From an uncultured Prevotellaceae bacterium (GTDB taxonomy: Bacteria; Bacteroidota; Bacteroidia; Bacteroidales; Bacteroidaceae), in NCBI GenBank assembly GCA_902764705.1, contig CACWWZ010000014.1, positions 1-55,268 of the forward strand: a stretch of 55,268 nt of DNA, written 5' to 3'. The notes under the pieces are model-generated. The model made no database searches and had not been told where the DNA came from. It saw only the letters and a program-made list of their open reading frames with translations. Positions 14,964 to 36,674 of this stretch are shown here, one piece after another; the first letter of the stretch is position 1, and every line of letters starts with the position of its first letter. Made by a program: the position numbers and the translations under genes.

Positions 14964-14972
14964 CAAAAATAA

Positions 14973-15012
14973 ATGAAGAATGAAGAATGAAGAATGAAGA
15001 ATTTGCTTTCGC
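14973..15012 (+). repeat. TGAAGAA-repeat family, copy A
   Basis: Four TGAAGAA-type heptamers followed by TTTGCTTTCGC, a variant of the family core TTTGCTACCGC. It lies between the lipoprotein stop codon and the tRNA promoter. Relative to the lipoprotein gene on the minus strand it is downstream of the stop codon, as other copies are to their genes. Confidence 0.8.
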
Positions 15013-15032: not shown

Positions 15033-15623
15033 TTATCGTTTTGTGCCCACGGAAAGGAAACCGTGAGGCCCTGTGGTGGTGGCGAGATACTTCTGCAAAC
15101 CGACGTCACCTTCTTCGCCATTCTGTATGAGGCCTCCGTTGTTGAGGTCGTATTTCTTGCCGCACTTGCCACAGGAGGCGATGCCGCTATTACTCATGGA
15201 CAGCGGGAATTTGGGGTTCAGGTAGTTGTTCTCGCGTCGCACGCAGTTGGGACACTGTGCGTCGTAAGCCACGAAACCGCCATTAGGCTGGGTATTCATG
15301 GTTTGGAAACCGACAATGATGCCATTGTTGAGTCCGAGGATGTAGTTAGACATGCGCTCCATCTCGGTAACGGTCTGATGGGTGGCATCACCACCCTGGT
15401 TGCTCTGGAAATGGAGTACGAGGCCACCCATGCTCGATTCCCAAATCTTGCAGAACACGCCGCGCGAATCGATATTCATGGCCGAAGCCAGCGTGGGGTC
15501 GAGGTGCAGGCTGTTGTCGTAAGTGAAACGACAAGGCCAGATGGAGTACTCGCCCTCCGCAGAGCAAGAGAAAAGTAAGAGGTAAGAGGTAAGAAGTAAG
15601 AGGTAAGAGAACAGCCGTTTCAT
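15033..15623 (-). CDS. Lipoprotein with paired-cysteine (zinc-ribbon or Rieske-like) domain
   Basis: This encodes 196 residues. The signal peptide is hydrophobic and ends in a lipobox (LLFSC, Cys20), so it should be membrane-anchored. The C-terminal half has two cysteine pairs, CPNC near residue 124 and CGKCG near 151, spaced like a metal site; the arrangement recalls a Rieske fold in which the two histidines are replaced by cysteines, or a zinc ribbon. The function is unknown. Its ATG overlaps the argH stop (ATGA). The signal-peptide core is encoded by five heptamer repeats (15575-15609), which makes this gene prone to slippage. Confidence 0.75.
   Translation of the reverse strand: MKRLFSYLLLLTSYLLLFSCSAEGEYSIWPCRFTYDNSLHLDPTLASAMNIDSRGVFCKIWESSMGGLVLHFQSNQGGDATHQTVTEMERMSNYILGLNNGIIVGFQTMNTQPNGGFVAYDAQCPNCVRRENNYLNPKFPLSMSNSGIASCGKCGKKYDLNNGGLIQNGEEGDVGLQKYLATTTGPHGFLSVGTKR
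15575..15609. repeat. Heptamer array inside a signal-peptide coding region
   Basis: Five units of GTAAGAG (one GTAAGAA) lie in the first codons of the lipoprotein gene, reading as leucine-rich signal peptide on the minus strand. Gain or loss of one unit would shift the frame. Confidence 0.85.
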
Positions 15624-21468: not shown

Positions 21469-23070
21469 ATGGCAAAAAAACTATTATTAGGAGACGAAGC
21501 AATTGCATTAGGAGCCATCCATGCCGGTCTTTCTGGCGTGTATGCTTATCCTGGCACCCCGTCAACCGAGATTACTGAGTTCATTCAGGGCAATGCTCTG
21601 GCGAAGGAACGCGGCATTCACAGCCGCTGGAGTACCAATGAAAAAACGGCTATGGAAGCCGCTCTGGGTATGTCGTTTATGGGCAAGCGCGCTTTGGTAT
21701 GTATGAAACACGTGGGACTGAACGTCTGTGCCGATCCGTTTGTGAACAGCGGTATGACGGGTGTCAACGGTGGTGTCATCGTGCTGGTGGCCGACGATCC
21801 GTCGATGCACTCATCACAGGACGAGCAGGACTCGCGTTTCTATGGTAAGTTCGCCATGATTCCCACTTTCGAGCCTTCGAACCAGCAGGAAGCCTACGAC
21901 ATGATGGAAGCTGCTTTCGAATATTCCGAGCAGCAGAAGCTGCCCGTGCTGATGCGTGTCACCACCCGTATGGCGCATAGCCGCGCCGTGGTGGAGGTGA
22001 AGGACGAAGCCCGTCAGCAGAACGAGCTGAACTACAATGCCGTTGCTGCCAACTGGGTGTTGCTGCCTGCCAATGCACGTAAGCGCAATGATGTGGTAAC
22101 GGCCCAACAGGCTCAGCTTGAGGACGATGCCGCCAAGTCGGCTTATAATATCTATTGCGAGGGTCAGGACAAGTCGCTGGGTATTATCGCCAGCGGCATT
22201 GGTTTTAACTATGTCAATGAATGTTTCCCCAAGGGTAGTCCCTACCCCATCCTGAAGATTTCGCAGTATCCATTGCCCAAGAAACTGGTGCGCCGACTTT
22301 TGGACGAGTGCGAAAAGGTGCTTATCGTCGAAGAAGGCCAGCCGTTCATTGAGGATATCGTTCGAGGTGTGGCAGAGAGCCAGAACATCAAGGGTAAGCT
22401 CGACGGAACCCTGCCCCGTACGGGTGAGTTGAACCCCGACATCGTAAAGAAGGCACTGGGCATGGAGTGCGGACAGTGCTTCGACCCCTGTGCCGATGTG
22501 GCTCCCCGTCCCCCGGCATTGTGTCAGGGCTGTGGTCACCGTGATGTGTATGCAGCCCTGAACGAGGTGCTGAAAGAGTACGAGAATCCCCGTGTCTTCG
22601 GTGACATCGGTTGTTACACGCTGGGCTTCCTGCCTCCGTTCCGTGCCATCCACTCTTGTGTCGACATGGGTGCTTCGATTACGATGGCGAAAGGTGCTGC
22701 CGATGCCGGTCAGTGGCCAGCCGTTGCCATCATCGGAGATTCGACCTTTACCCACAGCGGTATGACGGGTCTGCTCGATGCCATCAACGAGAATGCCAAC
22801 ATCACCGTTATCATCTCTGATAACCTGACGACGGGTATGACGGGTGGACAGGACTCTGCCGGTACGAACAAATTCGAGGCTATCTGTCGTGGTTTGGGCT
22901 TGAGCGACGAACACCTGAAGGTCGTTGTTCCCCTGCCGAAGAACATGCCCGAGATTACGCAGATTATCCGCGACGAGATTAACTACAAGGGCACCAGCGT
23001 GATTATTCCACGCCGTGAGTGCATGCAGACGTTGCAGCGTCATTTGAAGCAGAAAAAAGCCCAAAAGTGA
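21469..23070 (+). CDS. iorA: Indolepyruvate:ferredoxin oxidoreductase, alpha subunit
   Basis: IorA is the TPP-containing subunit that, with IorB, oxidatively decarboxylates aryl-pyruvates to aryl-acetyl-CoA using ferredoxin, or runs the reverse carboxylation. The 533 residues carry the N-terminal pyruvate-oxidoreductase domain (YAYPGTPSTEITE, 24-36), a Cys-rich segment RPPALCQGCGHRD with further cysteines just before it (about 332-360), and the TPP/Mg motif starting GDST at 423. The C-terminal 2[4Fe-4S] ferredoxin domain of archaeal IorA, about 70 residues, is missing; the protein ends soon after the TPP domain. It heads a cluster with iorB, an aminotransferase and two aryl-CoA ligases. Confidence 0.93.
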   Translation: MAKKLLLGDEAIALGAIHAGLSGVYAYPGTPSTEITEFIQGNALAKERGIHSRWSTNEKTAMEAALGMSFMGKRALVCMKHVGLNVCADPFVNSGMTGVNGGVIVLVADDPSMHSSQDEQDSRFYGKFAMIPTFEPSNQQEAYDMMEAAFEYSEQQKLPVLMRVTTRMAHSRAVVEVKDEARQQNELNYNAVAANWVLLPANARKRNDVVTAQQAQLEDDAAKSAYNIYCEGQDKSLGIIASGIGFNYVNECFPKGSPYPILKISQYPLPKKLVRRLLDECEKVLIVEEGQPFIEDIVRGVAESQNIKGKLDGTLPRTGELNPDIVKKALGMECGQCFDPCADVAPRPPALCQGCGHRDVYAALNEVLKEYENPRVFGDIGCYTLGFLPPFRAIHSCVDMGASITMAKGAADAGQWPAVAIIGDSTFTHSGMTGLLDAINENANITVIISDNLTTGMTGGQDSAGTNKFEAICRGLGLSDEHLKVVVPLPKNMPEITQIIRDEINYKGTSVIIPRRECMQTLQRHLKQKKAQK

Positions 23071-23106
23071 AGAATGAAGAATGAAGAGTGAAGAATTTGC
23101 TACCGC
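23067..23106 (+). repeat. TGAAGAA-repeat family, copy B
   Basis: Four TGAAGAA-type heptamers, then TTTGCTACCGC. The iorA stop TGA is the first part of the repeat. The following bases (CTACCGCTCGGTAG, 23100-23113) form a small perfect palindrome, as if the core of a right-hand copy had been fused on with everything else deleted. Confidence 0.85.
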
Positions 23107-25101: not shown

Positions 25102-26202
25102 ATGACTTTCAAAAATCTTTTCAGACAGTCTGCCCTCGCATTGCTGCTGGCATTCGTCAGCACGAGTGTGATGGCGCAAGAGAAGAAATCCACTAAAGAG
25201 ATTGACTGGTTTCAGGAGCTGAAGAGCCGCATCACGCTCAATGGTTATGCTCAGGCAGGCTACTCCTACACAGATCAAGAAGAGGCCATGCGCGGCGGAG
25301 CGCCTAAAAGCAGTTACAACCTGAAGCGCACCCTGCTGTGGGCAAAGGCCCGCATCACCGACCGCTGGTTCTTCCTCTTCATGCACGACTTCAACAGCGT
25401 GGTACAGGAGTTCTACACCGATTATCGTATCACCAAAGGCAATGAACTCACCGTTCGTCTGGGCCAGTTCAAAAACTCGTTCTCAATGGAGAATCCCTTG
25501 TCGCCCGTACAGCTCGAACTCATCGACGTCTGTTCGCAGGCCGTCACCTGTTACGCAGGTTGCTACGACCCCCTCTATGGCCTGCACTACGGTCGTGACC
25601 TCGGACTGGAATTCTATGGTGACCTGTTCAAAGGCCAGCTGCACTACGAATTAGGCATCATGAACGGACAGGGCATCAACCGCAAGGACGGCAACGATGA
25701 CAAGGACGTCATCCTGAAGTTGGAGTATCGTCCCTCAGATCAGTTCCGTTTCGTTGTCAGCGGACAAAAGGGTCGCGGACATGCCGTCAACGAGAAACCC
25801 GTATTCTGGAACCCCACCATACAAAATGGCGATGACTATCGTCGTGACCGCTATAGCGTAGGTATGGAAATCAAGAGCGCCCCCTACTCTCCCAGCAAAT
25901 ATAAGGAGGCCCGTCCACTGAAGGTTCGCGCCGAGTGGCTGGGCGGTAAGGACGGTGACGTGGGTAGCATGGGTGGCTATGTCACCTCAACCATCCCCAT
26001 CACCGACGGTCTCGATGCTGTTGCCTCTGTCGACTATTTCGACCGCAACACCGACATGAAGTACAACCAGACGCAAGCCACTGCCGGATTGCAGTACTGG
26101 TTCTACAAAAACTGCCGTATCCAATTGCAATATACCCGCACGTGGAGCAACTACCAGAAGGACTACAACTGGCTGCAAGGTCAGGTGCAGGTGGCATTCT
26201 AA
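25102..26202 (+). CDS. Outer-membrane porin (OprO/OprP-type)
   Basis: This outer-membrane beta-barrel protein of 366 residues has a signal peptide (1-19, cleavage after VMA). Its start region ITLNGYAQAGYSY and alternating aromatic strands, ending in QGQVQVAF with a terminal Phe, match phosphate-selective porin O/P-like proteins. I start at MTFKNLF because an upstream ATG lies inside the preceding gene. Located next to a sodium symporter in an aryl-acid gene cluster, it may admit small anions such as aryl-acetates; the ligand is inferred from context only. Confidence 0.85.
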   Translation: MTFKNLFRQSALALLLAFVSTSVMAQEKKSTKEIDWFQELKSRITLNGYAQAGYSYTDQEEAMRGGAPKSSYNLKRTLLWAKARITDRWFFLFMHDFNSVVQEFYTDYRITKGNELTVRLGQFKNSFSMENPLSPVQLELIDVCSQAVTCYAGCYDPLYGLHYGRDLGLEFYGDLFKGQLHYELGIMNGQGINRKDGNDDKDVILKLEYRPSDQFRFVVSGQKGRGHAVNEKPVFWNPTIQNGDDYRRDRYSVGMEIKSAPYSPSKYKEARPLKVRAEWLGGKDGDVGSMGGYVTSTIPITDGLDAVASVDYFDRNTDMKYNQTQATAGLQYWFYKNCRIQLQYTRTWSNYQKDYNWLQGQVQVAF

Positions 26203-26235
26203 ATGAAGAATGAAGAATGAAAAATTTGCTACCGC
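26203..26235 (+). repeat. TGAAGAA-repeat family, copy C
   Basis: Three heptamers (the last TGAAAAA) then TTTGCTACCGC. It begins at the base after the porin stop codon and ends 30 bp before the symporter start. Confidence 0.85.
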
Positions 26236-27789: not shown

Positions 27790-27792
27790 ACA

Positions 27793-28289
27793 ATGAAGAG
27801 TGAAGAATGAAGAATGAAGAATTTGCTTCCGCACAGACAACTTCTTACAAAAGAAACGAATCTGTACTTCACATCAAGAGTTATGCATTTGGTGTGCGGA
27901 TAGTAAAGATGTTTTTGCACTTTTCTGAGGGTGACTGGAAATTACAGACCTTATACAAACAGATATTAAGGTCTGGAACTTCTATTTCTGCTAATGTCCA
28001 TGAATCGGAATTTGCACAAAGTCCTTCGGACTTCGCTTCAAAACTTCATATTGCTCTCAAGGAAGCCAATGAAACTATGAACTGGCTCAATCTTTTACAT
28101 GATGTATCTATCCTTGAAGATAATGCTTACGAAAGCATGTCAAAAGATTGTAGTGAGATCATAGATCTATTGGTTGCATCTGTTAAAACAATAAAAAAGA
28201 ATAATCCTAAAAAACAAAAGAATGAAGAGAATGAGGACGAGGAGATGCGGTAGCAAATTCTTCATTCTTCATTTTTCATTCTTCATTTT
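27793..28289 (+). mobile_element. Candidate mobile element: inverted repeats flanking a four-helix-bundle gene
   Basis: Two near-identical repeats of about 41 bp in inverted orientation (27793-27832 and 28247-28289; one mismatch in the core and a few in the heptamers) enclose one gene. The gene's start codon lies in the left repeat and its stop codon TAG is part of the right repeat's CGGTAG. The layout, an inverted-repeat stem around an IVP-type gene, is that of an rRNA intervening sequence, but it sits between a symporter gene and an aryl-CoA ligase gene. No target-site duplication was recognised. Confidence 0.65.
27807..28253 (+). CDS. Four-helix-bundle protein (23S rRNA intervening-sequence protein family)
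   Basis: This 148-residue protein has the hallmarks of the IVP/S23-like four-helix-bundle family: SYAFGVRIVKMF (about 26-37), KQILRSGTSISANVHESEFAQS (52-73), FASKLHIALKEANETMNWL (76-94) and a final helix. Related proteins are encoded in intervening sequences of some 23S rRNAs and in Avd proteins of diversity-generating retroelements, and bind nucleic acid. The first ten residues (MKNEEFASAQ) are encoded by the left repeat and the last codon plus stop by the right one. The C-terminus is a charged, low-complexity tail. AT-rich codon use contrasts with its neighbours, which supports transfer. Confidence 0.88.
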   Translation: MKNEEFASAQTTSYKRNESVLHIKSYAFGVRIVKMFLHFSEGDWKLQTLYKQILRSGTSISANVHESEFAQSPSDFASKLHIALKEANETMNWLNLLHDVSILEDNAYESMSKDCSEIIDLLVASVKTIKKNNPKKQKNEENEDEEMR

Positions 28290-30926: not shown

Positions 30927-30930
30927 CAAA

Positions 30931-31118
30931 ATGAAGAATGAAGAATGAAGAGTGAAGAATTTGCTACCGCTTTGGTGATGCCAAGCGAACATGCTGCGCC
31001 TTCATGCTTCTCTTCAGTCTTCTCATGTAAAGAAAAAAAATAATAATGTTAAAAATGAGTGATGATGCAAGCAATGTCGTGCGGTAGCAAATTCTTCATT
31101 CTTCATTCTTCACTCTTA
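30931..31118 (+). mobile_element. Gene-less inverted pair of TGAAGAA repeats
   Basis: A forward copy (30931-30970, heptamers plus TTTGCTACCGC) and an inverted copy (31081-31118) enclose 110 bp with no protein gene. A reading frame opening in the left copy begins MKSEEFATAL and runs 32 codons; the right copy again supplies a CGG-TAG end. This looks like a deleted, non-autonomous relative of the 27793-28289 element. Confidence 0.6.
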
Positions 31119-31129
31119 ACTAAAAAAAT

Positions 31130-31629: not shown

Positions 31630-33135
31630 TTATTTGTTCAGTTTCCACGTGACACCGTCTTTGGTGTCCTTGACTTCGAAACCGGCAGCAGCGAGTTCAT
31701 CACGGATCTTGTCACTGGTAGCCCAGTCCTTATCGGCCTTGGCCTTGGCACGCAGTTCGAGCACCATGTCAACTACCTTGCCGAAGGCTTCCTCACGGGC
31801 GGCGTTGCCGCCAGTTGAGAGTTGAGAGTTGAGAGTTGAAAGTCCAAGGATGTCGAAAGCGAAGAGGTGCATCACCTCCTTCAGCTCCTTCAGGCAGTCG
31901 GCACAGATGGTTGCCTTATGGTCTGTCAGTTTATTAATCGTAGTGCATGCCTCGAACAAATAGCTCAACACCAGCGGTGTGGCGAGGTCGTCGTTCATAG
32001 CGTCGTAGCACTTCTCGCGCAGGGTCTTTACCACGCGCTCGGTCTCAGCATCACACTTGTCGCTAACCGGAACGCGCTCCAGGTCGTTGATAGCATTCAT
32101 CAGTTTCTCGTAACCCTTCTCGGCAGCCTGCAGGGCCTCATTCGAGAAATCTACAGTGCCACGATAGTGGGCTGAGAGCACGAAGAAACGGATAGTCATG
32201 GGCGAATAAGCCTTCTCGAGCAGAGGATGATTGCCCGTAAAGAACTGCTCGAGCGTGATGAAGTTGTTGTACGACTTACCCATCTTCTGTCCGTTGATGG
32301 TGAGCATGTTGTTGTGCATCCAGTATTTGACGGCTGGATGACCCATCGAGGCCTGAGCCTGAGCAATCTCACACTCATGGTGGGGGAAGATGAGGTCCAT
32401 GCCACCTCCGTGAATGTCGAACTCCTCGCCCAGATACTTTCGACCCATGGCTGTGCACTCACAGTGCCAACCTGGGAAACCGTCGCTCCAGGGTGATGGC
32501 CAGCGCATGATGTGCTCGGGCTGAGCTTTCTTCCACAGGGCGAAGTCGGCCTGATTGTGCTTTTCGCCGACACCATCGAGGTTGTCGCGTGAGGCATCTT
32601 TGATATTCTCCAACGAACGTCCGGAGAGAATACCATACTTATATTGTTTATTATACGCTTCGATATCAAAGTAAATGGAACCGTTCGACTCGTAAGCAAA
32701 ACCGTTGTCGAGAATCTGCTGTACCAACTGCTGTTGCTCGATGATATGACCCGTGGCGTGCGGCTCAATAGAGGGACGCAACACGTTCAGTGCATCCATG
32801 AACTGGTGGTAGCGGTTGGTATAGTACTGGGCAATCTCCATGGGTTCGAGCTGCTCCAAGCGAGCCTTCTTAGCTATCTTGTCCTCGCCCTCGTCGGCAT
32901 CGTGCTCCAGATGGCCCACGTCGGTGATGTTGCGTACATAACGCACCTTATAGCCCAGATGCCTCAGATAGCGGAACACCAGGTCGAAGGTGATGGCGGG
33001 ACGGGCGTGTCCCAGATGGGGGTCTCCGTAAACGGTAGGACCACATACATACATGCCCACATTGGGGGCGTGCAACGGTTCGAAACGCTCCTTCTGGCGC
33101 GTTAACGTATTATAAATTACTAACTTCGATTCCAT
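31630..33135 (-). CDS. cysS: Cysteinyl-tRNA synthetase
   Basis: This class Ia synthetase charges tRNA-Cys. The 501 residues include the zinc-binding cysteine in [19 protein letters not shown], whose HLGH is the HIGH motif; further ligands [10 protein letters not shown] and HHECEIAQ; and [11 protein letters not shown], the KMSKS motif with Gly in place of the first Ser. The C-terminal region carries an in-frame heptamer insertion encoding [12 protein letters not shown] (31814-31848) between the anticodon-binding helical bundle and the terminal domain. A TATCTTTG promoter box lies just upstream. Confidence 0.97.
31814..31848. repeat. Heptamer array inside cysS
   Basis: Three GTTGAGA units, then GTTGAAA and GTCCAAG lie within the coding strand of an essential gene. 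They read as a short Ser/Thr/Leu linker. The unit is not a multiple of three, so only changes by three units keep the frame. Confidence 0.85.
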
Positions 33136-33163: not shown

Positions 33164-33170
33164 CAAATAA

Positions 33171-33198
33171 ATTAAGAATTAAGAATTAAGAATTAAGA
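33171..33198. repeat. Heptamer array between divergent promoters
   Basis: Four perfect ATTAAGA units lie between the cysS promoter box and that of the neighbouring lipoprotein gene, so a change in copy number would alter spacing of both. Confidence 0.85.
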
Positions 33199-33207
33199 AA
33201 TATTTCG

Positions 33208-36084: not shown

Positions 36085-36659
36085 AGCAACCCGCTATTAT
36101 CATACCACAAGGAGCGCACGAGGTGCTGTTGCACGCTTGCTGCGCTCCTTGTTCATCAGCCATCGTAGAGTGGATGTTGGCACACGACGTCCGCCCAACC
36201 ATATTCTATTATAACCCCAACATCTACCCCCGCGAGGAATACGACATCCGAAAGAACGAGAGCAAACGGCATGCCGACTCTTTGGGCATCCGCTGGATTG
36301 ACGGCGACTACAACCACGAGGCGTGGCTCAATAGTGTTCATGGGTTGGAATGCGAACCGGAACGGGGCAGCCGCTGTGCACTTTGTTTCCGACTGCGTCT
36401 GACGGCAGCAGCCCGCGAAGCACGCCGACAGGGTTTGCGGTTCTTTACCACCACCCTCGCCTCTTCCCGTTGGAAGAGCATCGAACAGATTACTGCTGCC
36501 GGACTGCAGGCACAGGCAGCCGTGCCCGACACCGAATTCTGGGCACAAAACTGGCGCAAGGGCGGTCTCTACGAACGCCGCAACCAACTCCTAAAAGAAT
36601 ACGATTTCTACAACCAGCAGTACTGCGGCTGCGAGTTCTCTCTAAACCCTAAACTCTAA
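36081..36659 (+). CDS. queH: Epoxyqueuosine reductase QueH
   Basis: QueH converts epoxyqueuosine to queuosine in tRNA modification and is the alternative to QueG. The 192 residues carry an N-terminal Cys pair and third Cys (HACCAPC, Cys20/21/24), GSRCALCFRLRL and a C-terminal YCGCEF, which together hold an iron-sulfur cluster. It starts with GTG overlapping the preceding stop codon, so translation is coupled to the CoA-transferase. The last six residues are encoded by a heptamer array. Confidence 0.92.
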   Translation: MKQPAIIIPQGAHEVLLHACCAPCSSAIVEWMLAHDVRPTIFYYNPNIYPREEYDIRKNESKRHADSLGIRWIDGDYNHEAWLNSVHGLECEPERGSRCALCFRLRLTAAAREARRQGLRFFTTTLASSRWKSIEQITAAGLQAQAAVPDTEFWAQNWRKGGLYERRNQLLKEYDFYNQQYCGCEFSLNPKL

Positions 36660-36674
36660 ACTCTCAACTTTAGA
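36640..36674. repeat. Heptamer array at the 3' end of queH
   Basis: Period-7 units CTCTAAA, CCCTAAA, CTCTAAA, CTCTCAA, CTTTAGA run from the end of queH through its stop into the end of the convergent hemolysin-III gene. Confidence 0.8.

What the first reader, a model, noticed from the sequence alone, without database searches (positions are those of the whole stretch)
27793..28289. Intervening-sequence-like element placed between protein genes
Seen: two inverted repeats of about 41 bp bracket one IVP-type four-helix-bundle gene, and they are so close-fitting that the start codon lies in the left copy and the stop codon (TAG) in the right copy's CGGTAG. Known: related proteins are encoded in 23S rRNA intervening sequences, whose ORFs are also flanked by stem-forming repeats. 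Inferred: this is a unit of the same architecture that lives in ordinary DNA between genes, moving as a unit. Codon use is AT-richer than its neighbours. I know of no named mobile element with this layout.
Basis: partly seen in the sequence, partly recalled or inferred. Interest (0 to 1): 0.88.

Follow-up and report, generated by a model that had tools for sequence, protein, structure and literature searches.

The report
Mobile four-helix gene with heptamer ends
A small bacterial gene family, best known from odd inserts inside ribosomal RNA genes, often sits between inverted arrays of seven- or eight-letter repeats and can move together with them, which offers a source for short repeats that have long lain unexplained in many bacterial genomes.

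Summary
Confirmed, and larger than reported. Window 27792-28287 holds a PF05635 (23S rRNA IVP / S23) gene between two 42-nt inverted arms, each a heptamer array (AATGAAG)n plus an inner tail AATTTGCTWCCGC. The layout is general: inverted 7/8-mer arrays flank 42 of 53 Bacteroidales IVP genes (shifted controls 0 of 106) and 36 of 66 from many phyla (0 of 132). Unit length follows the protein tree. Arms also occur without the gene, as solos and close inverted pairs; genomes with the matching gene hold more copies, but orphan arm families exist. The three relatives that keep the window's neighbours adjacent lack the gene; close orthologs sit in seven contexts. On near-identical cyanobacterial plasmids, occupied and empty sites show arms plus gene arriving together, with 5-bp target duplications at two sites. 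No transposase lies in the unit. Arms show no RNA-wobble excess. Best reading: a single-gene mobile element that works like REPIN-RAYT with an unrelated protein. Movement as a unit is shown for the cyanobacterial relatives and inferred for the window's copy; that the IVP protein drives it is inferred.

The parts
27792..27833 (+). left arm: heptamer array (AATGAAG)n, inner tail 27820-27832 AATTTGCTTCCGC
27807..28253 (+). PF05635 / TIGR02436 gene, 148 aa (IVP, S23, four helix bundle protein)
28246..28287 (-). right arm, inverted: tail 28247-28259 GCGGTAGCAAATT, then array (CTTCATT)n
30930..31121 (.). gene-less pair of the same arms (110 nt between the tails); shared with G120, and the site where G144 has a complete IVP element
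23066..23106 (+). solo arm between two oxidoreductase subunit genes; absent in the five relatives in which this gene pair was read
26202..26235 (+). solo arm before the symporter gene; a similar one is present in G120, the only relative read there
14972..15012 (+). solo arm (tail with one change)

Best explanation
The feature is a compact mobile element of about 0.4-0.5 kb. Its ends are two inverted arms made of tandem 7- or 8-mers, in some families with a short inner tail, and its only gene encodes a PF05635 (IVP/S23) four-helix-bundle protein. Shown: in cyanobacterial relatives arms and gene insert together into arm-free sites between genes, with a 5-bp target duplication at two sites; arm-only copies (solo, or close inverted pairs) are dispersed in the genome; arm type follows the protein clade. 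Inferred: the window's copy arrived in the same way; the protein (its solved relative from Xanthomonas is a homopentamer) recognises its cognate arms, perhaps as a folded single strand of DNA, and promotes insertion or copying of arm-bounded units, gene-less ones included, much as RAYT proteins are thought to act on REPINs. A 5-nt staggered cut would explain the duplication. Whether the IVP protein or a host enzyme makes the cut is open.
For: Layout: 42 of 53 against 0 of 106 shifted windows, and 36 of 66 against 0 of 132; 11 of 12 on cyanobacterial plasmids. Empty and occupied sites with 5-bp duplications GTAAT and TTCTA. Elements 78-83% identical at three sites whose flanks are unrelated. 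Empty window site in three relatives and a complete element at a second site in G144. Seven contexts for 29 orthologs. Arm period follows the protein tree: 5 changes against 13.1 shuffled, 0 of 500 as low. Arm copies go with the cognate gene. Protein under purifying selection.
Against: No known catalytic domain in the protein. Orphan arm families: 8 of 12 copy-rich genomes without a close ortholog show no tail-flanked IVP among the loci read. 14 of 61 and 37 of 80 IVP loci lack an arm pair above threshold. 18 of 29 orthologs share one locus, so movement is rare there. The 5-bp duplication rests on two sites; a third gave 3 bp and others were not clean. No movement was observed experimentally.
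Confidence: 0.62

Rival explanations
1. Passenger model: the inverted arms are a MITE/REPIN-like family moved by an unrelated enzyme encoded elsewhere, and the IVP gene is cargo.
For: No transposase-like domain in the only gene. Gene-less pairs multiply: two share one insert, and G034 has 12 compact pairs among the stretches read. Orphan arm families.
Against: Arm sequence and period change with the IVP clade and copy number goes with the cognate IVP gene. The protein is conserved. I did not search for an enzyme in trans.
Confidence: 0.22
2. Recombination model: arrays arise first by slippage or other means, and IVP genes are carried between array pairs by homologous recombination.
For: Short arrays of many kinds lie between genes, and array types differ at the same site in relatives.
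Against: The empty sites C1 and C2b have no array, so arms and gene arrived together, with duplicated target bases.
Confidence: 0.08
3. RNA-level intervening sequence: the arms are kept for a stem in the transcript that is processed as in rRNA intervening sequences, so that insertion is harmless.
For: Same protein family and stem layout as 23S rRNA intervening sequences (PMC4990558, passages).
Against: G-U 29 against A-C 49 sense-strand mismatches in 69 arm pairs, the reverse of what RNA pairing predicts. The element lies between protein genes.
Confidence: 0.05
4. Resident gene: an ordinary host gene, for instance a regulator that binds the repeats, with repeats kept for regulation.
For: Home locus kept in 18 of 29 orthologs; purifying selection.
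Against: Sporadic presence, several contexts, target duplications.
Confidence: 0.03

Closest known systems
23S rRNA intervening sequences with an S23/IVP ORF (Coxiella; Leptospira named in the same paper)
   Same: Protein family, size and flanking inverted stem; the Coxiella one has tandem heptamers (GACAGAT) before the ORF (PMC4990558, passages seen)
   Different: This one lies between protein genes; its arms are dispersed in the genome; no sign of RNA-level selection
REPIN-RAYT (PMC3116915: abstract, outline and passages seen)
   Same: Dispersed inverted doublets and singlets that go with particular proteins; gene-less units multiply
   Different: RAYTs are tyrosine transposases; here the protein is a four-helix bundle and the repeats are 7/8-mer arrays
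Cyanobacterial STRR sequences (PMC2670836, one passage seen: usually 7-bp repeats, function unknown, can form a hairpin)
   Same: 7-bp tandem repeats between genes in heterocystous cyanobacteria; arms of IVP elements there are such repeats
   Different: I found no statement in the passages and listings seen that ties STRRs to S23/IVP genes; published STRR sequences were not compared
TAACTGA heptamer repeats of Beggiatoaceae, Cyanobacteria and Bacteroidetes (PMC4679880, passages seen)
   Same: Intergenic heptamer arrays with patchy distribution and no known mechanism
   Different: Described mostly as direct repeats before start codons; S23 and four helix are not mentioned in that text
IVP genes in cas loci (PMC3936711, passages seen)
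   Same: 18 IVP genes reported in cas loci, often beside cas4 or cas6; seen here between cas6 and cas4 and inside a cmr operon
   Different: Here read as insertions between genes: the three copies seen have inverted arrays, and a plasmid with 98-99% identical flanks lacks the gene at cas6-cas4

Membership tests
PF05635 23S_rRNA_IVP protein family | Profile score above the curated cut-off | tested here: met
   75.2 bits, cut-off 33.8
PF05635 23S_rRNA_IVP protein family | Pentamer of four-helix bundles | not testable with these tools
   Sequence match to solved chain 2rld, E 6.2e-25; five chains per entry listed, assembly not examined
23S rRNA intervening sequence | Located inside a 23S rRNA gene | tested here: not met
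   Lies between a sodium:solute symporter and an AMP-binding ligase gene
23S rRNA intervening sequence | S23/IVP ORF inside inverted stem sequences | tested here: met
23S rRNA intervening sequence | Excision from RNA by RNase III | not testable with these tools
   Indirect test of sense-RNA pairing negative
REPIN-RAYT | Dispersed inverted doublets and singlets of a short repeat | tested here: met
REPIN-RAYT | Cognate gene is a tyrosine (Y1, HUH) transposase | tested here: not met
   Only PF05635 found in the protein
Insertion sequence / DNA transposon | Target-site duplication | tested here: met
   5 bp at two cyanobacterial plasmid sites; 3 bp at a third; not resolvable for the window's copy
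Insertion sequence / DNA transposon | Encodes a known transposase | tested here: not met
   Single gene, PF05635
MITE (gene-less arm pairs such as window 30930-31121) | Short non-coding unit with terminal inverted repeats in several copies | tested here: met
MITE (gene-less arm pairs such as window 30930-31121) | Target duplication and known helper transposase | tested here: inconclusive
   No clean empty site for a gene-less pair; helper not searched for
Cyanobacterial STRR | 7-bp tandem repeats between genes | tested here: inconclusive
   Arms on cyanobacterial plasmids fit the description; published STRR sequences not compared
Diversity-generating retroelement Avd protein | Linked reverse transcriptase and template/variable repeats | not tested
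   Resemblance of Avd to S23 proteins is recalled only

The most novel reading that the evidence does not exclude
PF05635/S23 proteins are the mobilising proteins, perhaps the recombinase itself, of a cross-phylum class of mobile DNA whose ends are clade-specific 7/8-mer arrays. Cyanobacterial STRRs, Bacteroidales heptamer arrays and 23S rRNA intervening sequences would all be products of this one system.
Probability: 0.35. Interest if true: 0.95.

Novelty: categorically new. Interest (0 to 1): 0.87.

Why it matters
It ties together three unexplained things: what the widespread S23/IVP proteins do (79 of 100 genomes searched here, own included, up to 15 per genome), where intergenic heptamer arrays in Bacteroidetes and Cyanobacteria come from, and where rRNA intervening sequences come from. 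It gives a prediction that can be tested in harmless laboratory strains: the unit moves with its arms, leaves 5-bp duplications, and needs the four-helix protein. If the protein proves catalytic it would be a new kind of DNA-moving enzyme.

Tried and rejected
Considered and rejected: selection for a stem in the sense RNA (G-U 29, A-C 49, other 102 mismatches in 69 arm pairs). Arrays as pre-existing landing sites (empty sites C1 and C2b have none). A phage origin: no match of one IVP query (L015) among 50,697 phage records, and none for the window protein in PHROGs. A catalogued defence gene: none in PADLOC. Strict one-to-one pairing of gene and arms: orphan arm families exist.

Led nowhere: exact insertion ends in the window's own relatives, because the intergenic DNA is too diverged. 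Junctions at the Aulosira and Calothrix plasmid sites did not resolve, and at cas6-cas4 the comparison plasmid holds 273 nt of other sequence. The first synteny script read minus-strand loci in the wrong direction and was replaced. In one search minus-strand loci were not turned either, which does not affect a test for inverted repeats; one search turned them. Literature: searches found no paper; others showed (listings, at most 20 rows each) none that links S23/IVP genes to flanking heptamer arrays. Only open PMC papers are held, so novelty is not proven.

Limits of the samples and rows dropped: the 61 loci are the two own genes and the best-scoring 30 and 29, not random draws; the 80 loci are the best of 586. 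Dropped for incomplete flanks: 8 of 61 and 14 of 80. No clear period: 4 of 53. Saturated dS: 145 of 171 pairs. Of the 30 plasmid records with a match 12 were fetched first. In one search the second-type test used 52 genomes without the protein; recounting (60 genomes, own included) gives 51, with 2 positive.

Full report
1. What is there. Window 27792-28287 contains a 148-aa ORF (27807-28253) between two inverted 42-nt arms, 39 of 42 positions complementary. Each arm is a tandem heptamer array (AATGAAG, 4.4 copies) followed on the inside by AATTTGCTWCCGC. The protein matches PF05635 (75.2 bits, cut-off 33.8) and TIGR02436; the one solved chain found by sequence is 2rld. A profile of 13 relatives finds 2gsc and 2rld; the Xanthomonas relative is described as a homopentamer in PMC4990558 (passage). 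GC is 35.4% inside against about 55% next door.

2. The arms are a dispersed repeat family. The own genome has 33 exact copies of the 15-nt arm core AGAATTTGCTWCCGC (16 forward, 17 reverse; reversed-pattern control 0) but only two PF05635 genes. Copies are solo arms or inverted pairs with 18-136 nt of other DNA between them. Two pairs share a related 109-nt insert (L125, L126), so gene-less pairs multiply too. In G034, 12 of the 13 pairs found in the stretches read have 20-23 nt between the tails (stretches chosen because one search listed close pairs). The second own IVP gene (L010) also has inverted heptamer arms, of another sequence (ATTAAAC).

3. The layout is general. With a fixed test (ungapped, +1/-2, 250 nt of flank), 47 of 61 IVP loci score 14 or more; CoA-ligase (paaK) loci of the genus 0 of 29; left flank of one gene against right flank of another 22 of 366, some of which share an arm family. 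With windows shifted by 800-1000 nt as control: 42 of 53 against 0 of 106 in Bacteroidales, and 36 of 66 against 0 of 132 among the named loci. Over all 80 named loci 43 reach 14, mismatched flanks 4 of 320; those that reach it include records titled Fibrobacter, Geobacter, Alphaproteobacteria, Acidobacteriaceae, Planctomycetales, Kiritimatiellaeota, Omnitrophica and Clostridia. Periods of the arms: 7 in 24 and 24, 8 in 12 and 5, 9 in 0 and 2, 4 in 0 and 1, unclear in 6 and 4. On cyanobacterial plasmids 11 of 12 fetched IVP genes have such arms, 10 of them with period 7 (no shifted control there). Against: 14 of 61 and 37 of 80 fall below threshold.

4. Arms and protein belong together. On a tree of 53 Bacteroidales proteins, period 7 (34 rows) versus 8 (15 rows) needs 5 changes; shuffled labels need 13.1 on average, none of 500 as few (near-copies help such clustering). 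Of 299 genus genomes, own included, the 22 with a close ortholog (68% identity or more) hold the arm core in 17, median 6.5 copies; the other 277 in 87, median 0 (an ortholog's own arms count among the copies). The 16 orthologs with a tail in at least one arm all live in genomes with at least one copy; of the six without a tail, one does. A second arm type occurs in 6 of 9 genomes with the matching protein and 2 of 51 without, with 35 copies in the genome of its gene. A third core was found in 3 of 60 genomes, two of which carry the cognate gene. Exceptions are real: of 12 copy-rich genomes without a close ortholog, four have a tail-flanked IVP of another subclade (one on one side only), eight have none among the loci read (30 of 47 matches); G034 and G290, whose two matches each were all read, look like orphans.

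5. The unit moves. (a) Window site: three relatives keep symporter and ligase adjacent and have 70, 54 and 29 nt there instead of 506, no IVP (two re-read, flanks 96/93% and 86/90% identical in amino acids). (b) Next site, at 31 kb: G144 has a complete IVP element (88% identical over 109 aa) where the own genome and G120 have a gene-less arm pair; 15 other relatives have 8-139 nt with neither gene nor tail, some with other short arrays. (c) The 29 orthologs with E of 1e-30 or less (own included, of 299 genomes) lie in seven contexts by flank comparison; 18 share one home locus; 28 of 29 have arms, the other lies at a contig end. (d) Base level: at site C1 T. variabilis plasmid C and a Scytonema plasmid carry the element, and three plasmids about 97-98% identical in the flanks do not; empty AAAAAGTAATTAAC becomes AAAAAGTAAT-element-GTAATTAAC (5 bp; up to 8 with one mismatch). 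At C2b Nostoc plasmid pNsp_a reads GGTTCTA-element-TTCTAGTTATGC against GGTTCTAGGTTATGC in pNsp_c (5 bp); C052_D has the same insertion with one change in the right copy. At C2a only 3 bp overlap and about 36 nt are extra. The elements at C1, C2b and an Aulosira site are 78-83% identical over about 400 nt while their flanks show no similarity. Gene-less arm pairs also differ between these plasmids.

6. What keeps the arms alike. In 69 arm pairs the mismatches are G-U 29, A-C 49, other 102, so pairing in the sense RNA is not what is selected. At the home locus the A/G state of the units changes in both arms together across 17 orthologs (Pearson 0.98, not corrected for kinship), and in 28 of 28 orthologs the own arms match at least as well as the median foreign pair. 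This points to renewal or conversion of the arms at DNA level. The protein is constrained: dN/dS median 0.058, range 0.024-0.135, in 26 of 171 pairs with usable dS.

7. How it probably works. Shown: insertion as a unit and a 5-bp duplication at two cyanobacterial sites, dispersal of arms without the gene, matching of arms and protein. Inferred: the window's copy came the same way, and the protein binds its own arm type and promotes movement. Open: which enzyme cuts. There is no transposase in the unit. Invariant polar residues agree with the motif GxxRxxxSxxxNxxE noted for this family in PMC3936711 (passage); whether they are catalytic is unknown.

8. Known relatives. By location it is not a 23S intervening sequence; by protein it is neither a RAYT nor an IS. 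It works most like REPIN-RAYT (PMC3116915: abstract, outline and passages). Two observations in print fit: tandem heptamers before the S23 ORF of the Coxiella intervening sequence (PMC4990558, passages) and IVP genes in cas loci (PMC3936711, passages), which look here like insertions. Cyanobacterial STRRs, usually 7-bp repeats of unknown function (PMC2670836, one passage), are the likely counterpart of the arms there; published STRR sequences were not compared. I call it categorically new because no known family passed all its defining tests; the library searched is partial.

Noticed in passing
window 15575-15609, 31813-31843, 33170-33199, 36640-36669: Further 7-bp arrays of other sequences (GTAAGAG, AGTTGAG, AATTAAG, CTCTAAA), perhaps arms of other IVP families.
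   Followed up: no
L010 (G000:C43:35838-36071): The genome's second IVP gene has ATTAAAC-type inverted arms; the protein search reads it with two stop codons inside, so it may be decayed.
   Followed up: partly
L155:10736-11238 and the same gap in L154: A DUF559 gene lies between the two ligase genes, with CTCCCCTCCCT / AGGGAGGGGAG repeats on both sides; G051 has such repeats there without the gene. A second gene-plus-repeat unit of another kind?
   Followed up: partly
L110:1016-1944 (G000:C7): Two inverted arms 873 nt apart with a long open frame running between them on the minus strand; they seem to lie in or beside a coding gene.
   Followed up: partly
L264, L267, L274: IVP elements sit between cas6 and cas4 (two plasmids) and inside a type III-B cmr operon, which may explain IVP genes listed as cas-associated.
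   Followed up: partly
L313, L314, L320, L321: Weak partial PF05635 matches inside open frames of about 230-290 codons, below the family cut-off; perhaps a related longer protein.
   Followed up: no
L288:1097-1700: A Riemerella plasmid IVP gene has AAGGTTC/GGTTTAA-like repeats upstream and their inverted counterpart downstream (by eye).
   Followed up: no
L101, L102, L106, L121, window 14972-15012: Solo arms close to GCAAAGGTA / TACCTTTGC, which resembles the Bacteroidetes promoter box (box recalled; sequences). Possible effect on transcription.
   Followed up: no
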